64,000 bases of DNA from the NCBI RefSeq assembly GCF_000003815.2, contig NC_049987.1:6175870-6239869 (forward strand), in the 5' to 3' direction. Position numbers and translations under genes: made by a program. The stretch is from Branchiostoma floridae. Taxonomy: Eukaryota > Chordata > Leptocardii > Amphioxiformes > Branchiostomatidae. The notes beneath the pieces are model-generated. The model was not told the origin of the DNA and did no database searches. It saw only the letters and a program-made list of their open reading frames with translations. Of this stretch, positions 13,001 to 62,980 are shown piece by piece; the stretch's first letter is position 1, and every line of letters starts with the position of its first letter.

Positions 13001-16000
13001 CGTCATTTCTGGAATATATAGGTCCGAATTTGTATTGGTTTCAGCTGTACTATCGCGTCCAGTGACAGTGGCTGCTCTCCTTGTCTGGCTTTTTGTATTT
13101 ATTTATTTATTTATTTATTTCTGTTTTCTTTATACAGGGTGGACACACTCAGTACTTTGCGTACTGCTTTTCAGGTGTGCCCTGTACAAACAACATACAC
13201 ACAATAGCATAACAAAGAAATAAGATAAACTAAACGATAAACAAACCAAGGAAACAATATATAAATGAACATAAATCAAAATCGTAACTCATTGATCAAA
13301 ATTGGTGCCGGATGTTATCATGTTTTATGCCTTGCTGAGTTTCATGACTTCTAGTGCAGCCAAACGTCTTCTTCCATATATGCTATTAATACCGCTCCAC
13401 TGATCATGAGCTCATACACTCCAGCAGGGACATACATTTATCGTCGTTCTTACCACGGCAAGAAATTCACGGTCGTTGAGTGCGTAGTCCAGAGGTCATT
13501 GACCTAAGACTGGATCATGAGTTCTGGATCATGAGTTCGGCAGTTCGAATCTCAGCTTAGGAAGGAAGGTTAAGTTGTGCTCCACTGTACATTGTGCTTG
13601 TCGAAAAAGAAATAGGGGAGTTTGCTTTGTACAATGAACCTGTACATACTGCACACATAGAGCCTGTCCTCTCTGTCACGACTAGTGCTAGTGAAAGGTA
13701 GCTCTTCAGCGAACTAAATTGGATCCCTCGATTTCCCTTGCTTCCACTTTCTTTCATTTCAAATTATCAAACGAACCCTTACCACAGCTGGGTGCAATTT
13801 GCACCGCAAAGTACATATACAAATTATCCCCATCCGTTACAGTACCGGTGCAGCCTGCTGGGGTAAAACAGCAAATGAAATTAGACGGTTTGGATTTCGT
13901 TTCTTTTGGCTGGAATCATTTCAAGTTTGCCATACTGGGAATTGACTGAAGACGGTTCACCAGATTATGGATGCCAGTAAACCACCTGAACACTTGAATT
14001 GAGTCACATTTGTTACATTACTGGTCTGGCTTCGTAAAGCGGGTACTTCACGGCGCCGCTAAGTCTTGAACCTGTGTTACCTTTGACCGGACAGGTATAT
14101 GACTAAAAAGTCAACAAAACACTCGAAGCGCGGTAAGATTCGTCTTTATCGATGAAGTTCGCTCGGTCGCAGTGACGCCGCCAACGTGTCGCAGTTTCAG
14201 TGAGATAAACGCTTAACACATGTTATGGAAATTTTAACTGATTAAAATTAGGTTTCTATGATCATTTCGGGATTGTCGTGCTGAGAAATGGAAGAATGAA
14301 GACAGTCCATGTAGTCACGTTATCCGGTAAAAGTTTGATTGACACCCGGGCCCCTTGATTAGTTGACCAGGACTAGATATTCATAGCGAGGTCGCGGCTA
14401 AAATCCATTTGTATCTCCTACTACTGGAAGGTGTTTCCGACTTGATGGCAATGTTATGATGCATATATGGTGTCGCGTTCTGTGTCCTGTAAGTGATAAT
14501 CCCCTATCATTTCACAACTATTGAACTTCAGTAGATGCTCTTTTGTCAGTATATCAAATCAACATACAGGCACAATTTCCCATGCAGATATTACAGATCA
14601 TTTATCCGGATTTCCATTTTGTTATGTGGATTTTGTAAATCCTAGTGTACTACCAAAGTATCGATTTTACAATGCTGTTGCGTCTCTAAAAGAAAAATTA
14701 CATGCACGCATCAATTTATAAGTAATAAACCCATGAAAAATAAAAGCTCATTTTAGTAGCGAAAGGTTCGTAAAATTTCTGATAACTCATAAAAATGACA
14801 AATCTGCCAGTGTACCGGCGCCCCGTGTCATTGTCTTCATACTTCACTTTAATGTGGTAGTTCTGCTGACAGCGGGTAATGTATCATTGGATGTCAAGTC
14901 TCATTCACTCGGAGTTTAGTACAGCTGCACATGAATACAAATTGGCCGCTTTGGTGAAAACAGTAACCCAAAGAGATTTTTGGCATGACTATTTTTGGCA
15001 CGACTATTACATTTTACCAAATCAGCCATCTATCAATCAATCAATTTATCAGTCACTGAAAGTTTACTACAGCCAATTTCTCTGTTTAGTACGGTAAGTC
15101 ACAGTGCAGATGACCTTTCGTGCTAAACGTGTGTTATGTGTCCTCAGAGCTTCCTCTAAAGAACATCCCAGCGACCCTGGAGGATACCGGAGCAGACAGC
15201 ATGTTTTCCAGACCGGCGTATTTCTCTGCTTAGTACGATAAGTCACAATATAGATGATCATTTGTACTAATCGTGTGTTTTGCGTCCACAGAGCTTCCTC
15301 TGAAGGACATCCCGGCGACCATCTATGATACCAGAGCCGAGAACATACTTCTATATACCATTTGTGCCTATCCCTTTCTCTGTTTAGTACGCAAGGTCAC
15401 AATACAGATGATCATTTGTGCTAAACGTGAGGTTCTGTGCCCACAGAGCTTCCTCTGAAGAACATCCCAGCGACCCTGGAGGATACAGGAGCCGACACCA
15501 TGCTGCTGTACACCACCCGGGCCGGCCTCACTGATCAGCTGGAGAACGAGGGAGCCTTCACCGTCTTCGCCCCCAGCAACGAGGCGTGGGCGGAACTACC
15601 ACAGGTGCCTCAGTTCGCTCCGTTGTACATTCTATTAATGCTAGTCCTAAGCATATTAAGTTCCTTAAGGTTTCTACACTGGCAAAAACAAAAAGAAAAG
15701 AAAGATAACTAATCATCAGACCAATTTCGACTGCGAAATTCGATTGAGGATCAAACCCGCTCATGATCGATCACTTCTGGCATGAGTCATCTTTCCGCAA
15801 ATGTGACGTCAAAAGTGGGTCAAATGTGTTCGGAAGTTGGTACCGCCCGCCGTTCTAGTAGTATGCATTCTATGTAGTACATGTATGTGTATCCTTTATG
15901 TACATACCTTTCATGCACCTTACTTTGAAACGTTGGATGAAACGTGGCATGCATTACCTGTAAAAAGAGAAAAAACGCCACAGCCAACCTCTGGTTTTAG

Positions 16001-62409: not shown

Positions 62410-62980
62410 GTACGGGTCCAGGTACGGTAACGAACGAATGAATTAGTAAAGAAAAGAAAGAAACTATAGTGAATATATAATGAGTGCATGCATAGATACG
62501 TTTGTCGTTTCATGTGTAAACGTTACCTAGCTGCAGTTCTCATGAAACAGGTCTTTGATGATAAAGGAATAATTAATGTCATCAAGTTCAGGTACGGGTC
62601 CAGGTACGGTAACGAACGAATGAATTAGTAAAGAAAAGAAAGAAACTATAATGAATACATAATGAGTGCACGTGCATGCATAGATACGTTTGTCGTTTCA
62701 TGTGTAAACGTTACCTAGCTGCAGTTCTCATGAAACAGGTCTTTGATGATAAAGGAATAATTAATGTCATCAAGTCCAGGTACGGGTCCAGGTACGGTAA
62801 CGAATGAATTAGAATGAATTAGTAAAGAAAGGAAAGAAACTATAATGTACATAATAAATGCATACACGAACACTTTGTAGACTTACGTGTAAAATGTTAC
62901 ATACAGTTATCTGAATACAGAGCTTTAAATGAAGAGTAAAAAATATCCTGAAGTTTAGATACGGGCCCAGATAAGGTGAT
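62400..62980 (+). repeat. Tandem array of about 185-bp units carrying the exon 8 donor pair
   Basis: CAAGTTCAGGTACGGGTCCA (62401) recurs at 62583 and, as CAAGTCCAGGTACGGGTCCA, at 62771, with degenerate forms near 62952 and 63105. Shared downstream blocks include AACGAATGAATTAG, ATAGATACGTTTGTCG and CGTTACCTAGCTGCAG. Unit spacing is 182 and 188 bp. Confidence 0.93.

What the first reader, a model, noticed from the sequence alone, without database searches (positions are those of the whole stretch)
15078..62980. Recurrent tandem duplication centred on exon/intron junctions in two unrelated neighbouring genes
At least nine junctions in this window are repeated in tandem: acceptors of gene 1 exons 4, 11 and 16 and gene 2 exon 5; donors of gene 1 exons 11, 14 and 16 and gene 2 exons 4 and 8. 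All of gene 2 exon 2 is also doubled. Most units are 80-190 bp and include the splice site plus a piece of exon; the exon 14 donor array uses a 31-bp unit. Random intronic tandem repeats would rarely stop at exon edges so often. I recall minisatellites across intron-exon borders ('mirages') at the amphioxus Adh locus; if that is the same phenomenon, this window shows it also in longer units and on both sides of single exons. It could reflect a duplication process tied to splice-site sequence or co-transcriptional structure, and it would feed new exons.
Basis: partly seen in the sequence, partly recalled or inferred. Interest (0 to 1): 0.87.

Follow-up and report, generated by a model that had tools for sequence, protein, structure and literature searches.

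The report
Tandem repeats across exon-intron junctions
Several exon-intron borders in two neighbouring lancelet-type genes carry extra tandem copies of themselves, a known amphioxus oddity called 'mirages'; a small sample of the same genome suggests they mostly reflect a general load of tandem duplications, not a process aimed at splice sites.

Summary
The arrays are real: tandem self-matches cover 7 of the 9 claimed junctions. The other two (gene 1 exon 11 and 16 donors) are degenerate but supported. Gene 1 is a FAS1-repeat protein, gene 2 a glycine-receptor-like subunit. The doubled gene 2 exon 2 differs: two open, same-phase exons that shift the frame if both are included. Junction-crossing minisatellites are published in amphioxus as 'mirages', with units up to 160 bp and on both junction types. 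In 185 kb sampled elsewhere in this assembly, junctions lie in arrays no more often than other noncoding sites: 9 of 246 against 5.6%, ratio 0.65, 95% 0.21-1.20. Counting founder units gives a twofold excess, 9 of 31 against 4.5, P 0.018, which shrinks to 6 of 29 against 3.6, P 0.13, with exons masked. A strong splice-site-directed process is not supported; a weak bias is not excluded. A CCT2-like gene has a 14-copy donor array where its sister copy has one unit. Best reading: ordinary tandem duplication, tolerated because the working site is the exon-side copy.

The parts
15447..29304 (+). Gene 1, exons 4-17: fasciclin (FAS1) repeat protein, 14 exons in one open frame
15076..15515 (+). Exon 4 acceptor array, 3 copies, unit 144-155 bp (about 69 nt of exon in the unit); authentic acceptor 15446|15447 is the last copy; both decoy AGs intact
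21383..21902 (+). Exon 11 acceptor array, 3 copies, unit 132-151 bp; authentic acceptor 21846|21847 is the last copy
22016..22366 (+). Exon 11 donor, degenerate copies (weak); authentic donor 22016|22017 is the first copy
26604..27211 (+). Exon 14 donor array, 31-bp unit x 19.4; starts at the donor 26604|26605, almost wholly intronic
28319..28549 (+). Exon 16 acceptor array, 3 copies, mixed with a TGTT-type microsatellite; authentic acceptor 28534|28535 is the last copy; decoy at 28453 is in frame with the exon (81 nt)
28672..28804 (+). Exon 16 donor, second copy of the exon end plus donor, next to a GAATA microsatellite; authentic donor 28697|28698
40061..62409 (+). Gene 2, exons 1-8: glycine-receptor-like Cys-loop subunit; the frame is not closed by exon 8, so further exon(s) lie beyond its donor
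40669..40748 (+). Gene 2 exon 2a, 80 nt, reads (A)[26 protein letters not shown](G)
40827..40912 (+). Gene 2 exon 2b, 86 nt, reads (A)[28 protein letters not shown](G); same phase as 2a, both together shift the frame
54613..55484 (+). Gene 2 exon 4 donor array, 121-bp unit, 5 close plus 2 degenerate distal copies; alternate copies most alike (242-bp dimer step)
58269..58503 (+). Gene 2 exon 5 acceptor, 2 copies, unit 145-148 bp; the upstream copy has lost its AG (AC)
62401..62990 (+). Gene 2 exon 8 donor array, unit 182-188 bp, 9 nt of exon in the unit; 3 closer plus degenerate distal copies
32499..34583 (+). Tandem array away from junctions (between the two genes, about 270-bp unit), comparison
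46458..46694 (+). Tandem duplication inside gene 2 intron 2, comparison
49970..50460 (+). Tandem duplication inside gene 2 intron 3, comparison
52453..53596 (+). Degenerate array inside gene 2 intron 3, related to sequence in other fetched stretches, comparison

Best explanation
These are mirages: ordinary tandem (minisatellite-like) duplications, here with units of about 30-190 bp, that happen to include a splice junction and then grow and shrink by unequal exchange or slippage. They are common because the genome carries a heavy load of such duplications: 5.6% of the sampled noncoding DNA lies in tandem matches. They persist because the working splice site is the copy on the exon side (last copy of an acceptor array, first copy of a donor array, in all nine cases here), so the other copies stay in the intron. 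Decoys are probably ignored because they lack a matching partner site across an exon (exon definition). Shown: the arrays, the position of the authentic copy, the intact decoy sites, the dimer-step pattern, and an array present in one gene copy and absent from its sister. Inferred: slippage or unequal exchange as the motor, and exon definition as the reason for tolerance.
For: Coverage of junctions by arrays outside the window is 9 of 246 (3.7%), no higher than noncoding sequence as a whole (5.6%; ratio 0.65, bootstrap 95% 0.21-1.20). It does not peak at junctions: 3.4% at 1-50 bp, 4.0% at 51-150, 5.5% at 151-400, 7.6% at 401-1000, 7.2% beyond. With exons masked before detection, control arrays abut a junction 6 of 29 times against 3.6 expected (P 0.13).

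Mirages also occur in housekeeping chaperonin (CCT) genes: 5 of 106 Pfam-supported CCT junctions (one of the five, L039:7339, rests on a poor acceptor). A CCT2-like gene also has a 67-bp x 14 donor array at L037:5144 (53 nt exon + 14 nt intron), whose sister copy about 5.6 Mb away has one unit and homologous flanks on both sides.

In the window, each acceptor array ends in, and each donor array begins in, the working exon. 6 of 7 decoy acceptors keep AG, and 3 of 7 score above the authentic site. Alternate copies of the gene 2 exon 4 array are 98.3% and 96.7% alike, against 93.4% for neighbours among copies 2-5.
Against: Counting arrays by founder unit gives an excess at junctions. In the window, gene 1 has 4 of 4 against 0.9 expected (P 0.002) and gene 2 has 3 of 6 against 0.5 (P 0.009), exon 2 left out. 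In the control, 9 of 31 against 4.5 (P 0.018); CCT stretches with all exons, 8 of 15 against 3.7 (P 0.012); CCT with Pfam-supported exons only, 5 of 15 against 1.9 (P 0.03). Another placement null gave 9 of 31 against 3.5, P 0.0035, and for CCT 8 of 15 against 2.9, reached in none of 2000 placements. With exons masked the window still gives 3 of 4 against 0.8 and 3 of 6 against 0.5. The coverage test understates junctions, because only the first or last unit of an array can hold a working junction. The control is small: 70 of its 123 exons are my own predictions, and 4 of its 9 covered junctions belong to such predicted exons. No RNA data were available, so tolerance by exon definition is untested.
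Confidence: 0.68

Rival explanations
1. A duplication process directed to splice junctions (for example through co-transcriptional R-loops or pausing at exon edges) creates mirages at a raised rate.
For: Founder-unit tests show an excess: window 4 of 4 and 3 of 6; control 9 of 31 against 4.5 (P 0.018); CCT 8 of 15 against 3.7 (P 0.012) and, verified exons only, 5 of 15 against 1.9 (P 0.03).
Against: No peak of array coverage at junctions in the control. The control excess falls to 6 of 29 against 3.6, P 0.13, when exons are masked before detection. The window was chosen because it looked extreme. 22 of 31 control arrays and 5 of 13 window arrays touch no exon edge.
Confidence: 0.17
2. Selection favours or keeps the junction copies because they regulate splicing or supply new exons.
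For: Most decoy acceptors are intact, some scoring above the authentic site. One decoy acceptor (28453) would add 27 codons in frame. Intron gain from mirages has been proposed (PMC3087553, passage).
Against: Of the other decoy acceptors, exon 4 decoy 1 and both exon 11 decoys meet an in-frame stop, exon 4 decoy 2 and exon 16 decoy 1 lie 155 and 206 nt from the working site and so out of frame, and the gene 2 exon 5 decoy has lost its AG. Distal copies of the two long gene 2 donor arrays are degenerate. The CCT2-like sister gene does without the array.
Confidence: 0.08
3. Assembly errors made the arrays.
For: The window has N gaps, one flanked by 95%-identical copies (29792-29951 and 30483-30641). 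PMC3087553 reports that a globin array was aberrantly assembled in the draft.
Against: Copies within arrays differ by 1 to over 40%, which collapsed or doubled reads do not explain. For PGBD5 the authors say that resequencing argues strongly against assembly errors (PMC3902484, passage).
Confidence: 0.04
4. Gene 2 exon 2 doubling is part of the same mirage process.
For: It is a tandem duplication 158-164 bp apart in the same gene.
Against: Both copies have full splice sites and open, same-phase frames. Similarity is concentrated in the exon and the pair together shifts the frame. This is the pattern of alternative exons, not of junction decoys.
Confidence: 0.1

Closest known systems
Amphioxus 'mirages' (Adh3; also globins BflGb6 and BflGb9, troponin C, PGBD5)
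   Same: Tandem copies of an intron-exon boundary; units 10-160 bp; both acceptor and donor sides; copies often imperfect; copy number differs between haplotypes or assemblies (BflGb6 6 and 3 units; PGBD5 2 or 7 and 3 or 6) (passages read)
   Different: Here 7-9 junctions in two neighbouring genes at once, two exons with arrays on both sides (one weak side each), one array of 31-bp units that is almost wholly intronic, units up to 188 bp; no haplotype or RNA data of my own
Mutually exclusive (alternative) tandem exons, as recalled for Cys-loop receptor genes
   Same: Gene 2 exon 2a/2b: similar length, same phase, both with good splice sites, frame lost if both are included
   Different: Alternative use is not shown here; the comparison with receptor genes is from memory
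Intron gain by tandem genomic duplication (PMC4974935; listing with title and start of abstract seen)
   Same: A duplication that copies splice signals could turn exon sequence into an intron
   Different: In this window nothing shows that an intron was gained

Membership tests
Amphioxus mirage | Tandem repeat units contain an intron-exon boundary | tested here: met
   7 of 9 junctions by self-BLAST, 2 more by local alignment
Amphioxus mirage | Many, not all, repeat units keep AG or GT signals | tested here: met
   6 of 7 decoy acceptors keep AG; four gene 2 exon 4 decoy donors score the same as the authentic one
Amphioxus mirage | Copy number is unstable between haplotypes or individuals | tested here: inconclusive
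   No second allele of this locus was found: a 33-base gene 2 exon 4 word has one match with up to 3 mismatches in the assembly. A CCT2-like sister copy elsewhere shows 14 against 1 units
Amphioxus mirage | Normal splicing of the mRNA continues | not testable with these tools
   No RNA data; the open frames of both genes fit it
Amphioxus mirage | The organism is a cephalochordate | tested here: inconclusive
   513.4 Mb in 431 contigs, with the contigs fetched from being 17 to 35 Mb long, fits my memory of Branchiostoma floridae; no tool names the genome
Mutually exclusive exons (gene 2 exon 2) | Same phase, both open, frame lost if both are included | tested here: met
   80 and 86 nt, both open in the same phase, 166 nt together
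Mutually exclusive exons (gene 2 exon 2) | Alternative use in transcripts | not testable with these tools
   No RNA data

The most novel reading that the evidence does not exclude
In this genome tandem duplications are founded at exon edges about twice as often as elsewhere in introns, through some property of splice junctions or their transcription, so that a large share of genes carry decoy junctions that the spliceosome must ignore.
Probability: 0.17. Interest if true: 0.75.

Novelty: new member of a known kind. Interest (0 to 1): 0.38.

Why it matters
If mirages are only the visible edge of a general tandem-duplication load, at roughly 4% of junctions (9 of 246 in the control), many genes of this animal would carry spare splice sites, some as strong as the real ones, and would still have to be spliced correctly. 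That makes it a natural test of exon definition and a steady source of raw material for new exons or introns. The CCT2-like pair (14 copies against 1) is a clean case for following how such an array starts and whether splicing notices.

Tried and rejected
Tested and set aside: (1) the rotation test on coverage inside the window, because arrays near exons are counted in their own null; (2) placing whole arrays at random while refusing placements that contain an exon (gene 1 4 of 4 against 1.3, P 0.0135; gene 2 4 of 7 against 0.57, P 0.0005; CCT 8 of 15 against 2.9, none of 2000; all control 9 of 31 against 3.5, P 0.0035), because long arrays are then barred from exon-dense stretches; told here because it speaks against my reading; (3) a crude 'ends uniform' estimate (6 of 46 window and 6 of 246 control junctions abutted against 0.05 and 0.25), whose null is wrong because exon masking cuts arrays at exons by construction; (4) a search for array units elsewhere in the fetched stretches: apart from simple repeats only the intron 3 array resembles sequence there.

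Rows dropped: of 60 Pfam rows I used 54; left out were the six at C1:19.28 Mb, C6:9.45 Mb (two), C7:13.87 Mb (two) and C19:12.48 Mb. One of the 54 had no usable donor, leaving 53 exons. The N-gap flanks at 29.7-30.7 kb were left out of the window counts. Script faults: the truth set was off by one for minus-strand exons, so its exact-recovery figures are too low. In one search the two exon 4 decoy acceptors were mis-set and were redone. The exon 11 decoy donors were mis-set in both calls and have no valid score. The distal exon 8 decoys are doubtful and not used.

Literature: the Adh3 mirage paper (Canestro 2002) is not held (with a wrong DOI from memory, with the id from the reference list of PMC3087553). 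What I say of it comes from PMC3087553. I found no genome-wide count of mirages in the searches, which cover only the held open-licence library.

Full report
What is there. The window is bases 6175870-6239869 of contig 9 of a 513-Mb assembly. Gene 1 (exons 4-17, 15447-29304; exons 1-3 not located) is an open frame of 774 residues with five fasciclin stretches. Gene 2 (exons 1-8, 40061-62409) encodes a glycine-receptor-like subunit.

The arrays. After masking repeats of units up to 6 bp, self-BLAST at offsets 10-700 bp finds tandem matches scoring 21 or more. Three shuffled sequences reached at most 18. The exon 16 donor has one convincing second copy and the exon 11 donor only degenerate ones. 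In each acceptor array the working exon takes the last copy, and in each donor array the first. Units carry from about 2 to about 69 nt of exon (my reading of the matches). Six of seven decoy acceptors keep AG. Three of seven score above their authentic site on a matrix built from the window's own authentic sites.

How they grew. In the gene 2 exon 4 array, copies two apart are 98.3% and 96.7% alike and neighbours 93.4% (copies 2-5), while the two copies farthest from the exon are about 53-65% alike to the rest. This fits growth in two-unit steps by unequal exchange or slippage, with old copies left at the intron side (inference).

Exon 2 of gene 2. The two copies are 80 and 86 nt, open in the same phase, with good acceptors and donors. 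Including both shifts the frame. Similarity is concentrated in the exon. I read this as a pair of alternative exons, not a mirage; their use is untested.

Control sample. I fetched 20 further stretches (185 kb): 11 around chaperonin (CCT) genes found with PF00118, the two flanks of the window, and seven at 5 Mb on contigs 1-7. Of 123 exons, 53 rest on Pfam matches and 70 on a codon-usage and splice-matrix predictor. At the threshold used, that predictor overlapped 72 of the 76 known exons, on which it had itself been trained, and gave 7 exons in shuffled sequence where 83 were called in the same six real stretches. Arrays cover 3.7% of junctions (9 of 246; 5 at Pfam-supported exons, 4 at predicted ones), 3.4% of positions within 50 bp, 4.0% at 51-150 bp, 5.5% at 151-400 bp and 7.6% at 401-1000 bp. 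With a stricter exon threshold it is 9 of 214. The ratio of junctions to all noncoding positions is 0.65, bootstrap 95% 0.21-1.20. For Pfam-supported CCT exons alone it is 5 of 106 junctions against 6.0% of noncoding positions. In the window itself 12 of 60 junctions are covered, with 8-15% of noncoding positions, by distance.

Where the tests disagree. Coverage understates junctions, since only the first or last unit of an array can hold a working junction. Counting arrays by founder unit, 9 of 31 control arrays cross a junction against 4.5 expected (P 0.018). CCT stretches give 8 of 15 against 3.7 (P 0.012), or 5 of 15 against 1.9 with verified exons only (P 0.03); the other control stretches give 1 of 16 against 0.8. 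In the window it is 4 of 4 against 0.9 and 3 of 6 against 0.5, with exon 2 left out. But one copy of an exonic piece is held by selection, so crossing arrays stay detectable longer. With exons masked before detection the control gives 6 of 29 against 3.6 (P 0.13) and the window 3 of 4 against 0.8 (P 0.03) and 3 of 6 against 0.5 (P 0.006). The window was reported because it looked unusual, so its own P values cannot stand alone. I conclude that a strong pull towards splice sites is unlikely and a weak one is open.

A natural experiment. In a CCT2-like gene (identified by its sequence, from memory of the family) on contig 19, a donor array holds 14 copies of 67 bp, 53 nt of exon plus 14 of intron, and all 14 donors keep GT. 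A second copy of the locus about 5.6 Mb away in inverted orientation has homologous flanks on both sides (77% and 85% over the adjoining blocks) and a single unit. Whether it is a paralogue or a misplaced allele is not settled. A gene of a housekeeping family thus seems to live with 13 decoy donors, and the array either appeared after the two copies parted or was lost in one.

What is known. PMC3087553 (abstract, section 16 passages and part of the reference list seen) describes mirages in Adh3 (10-72 bp) and in globins (150-160 and 157 bp), at both 5' and 3' boundaries. It reports 6 and 3 units on two haplotypes, RT-PCR suggesting regular splicing, and a model of intron gain. PMC3902484 (passages seen) describes 60- and 108-bp units in PGBD5 with differing copy numbers between assemblies, and cites troponin C. 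So this window is a richer example of a known kind. What I add is a small test of whether junctions are special in this genome, with a mostly negative answer; I found no such test in the searches listed under Tried and rejected.

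Noticed in passing
40669-40912: Gene 2 exon 2 is present as two same-phase copies (80 and 86 nt) 78 nt apart that cannot both be included without a frame shift: candidate mutually exclusive exons in a glycine-receptor-like gene.
   Followed up: partly
L037:5089-6029 (C19 about 6.926 Mb) and L009 (C19 about 12.48 Mb): A CCT2-like gene has a 67-bp x 14 donor array; its sister copy in inverted orientation has one unit.
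   Followed up: yes
L036:1510, L036:8876, L039:8070, L040:4405: Further junction-crossing tandem duplications in chaperonin genes (two donors, two acceptors).
   Followed up: partly
28453-28534: The exon 16 decoy acceptor is in frame with the real exon over 81 nt without a stop, so its use would add 27 residues.
   Followed up: partly
58269-58298 and 58413-58445: Each copy of the gene 2 exon 5 acceptor unit holds two palindromic GTTGCTAGGTAAC-like words (by eye), resembling, from memory, RFX X-box motifs.
   Followed up: no
52453-53596: Degenerate array of about 150 bp in gene 2 intron 3 with relatives in other fetched stretches (L035, L037, L041). Words such as CCCTAGCG...GTACTGCAG also occur, by eye, in the exon 4 donor unit and near 22.8 kb, so that unit may derive partly from a dispersed repeat.
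   Followed up: partly
29792-29951 and 30483-30641: An N gap is flanked by 95%-identical copies, possibly a scaffolding or allelic artefact.
   Followed up: no
32499-34583: Array of about 270-bp units between the two genes.
   Followed up: no
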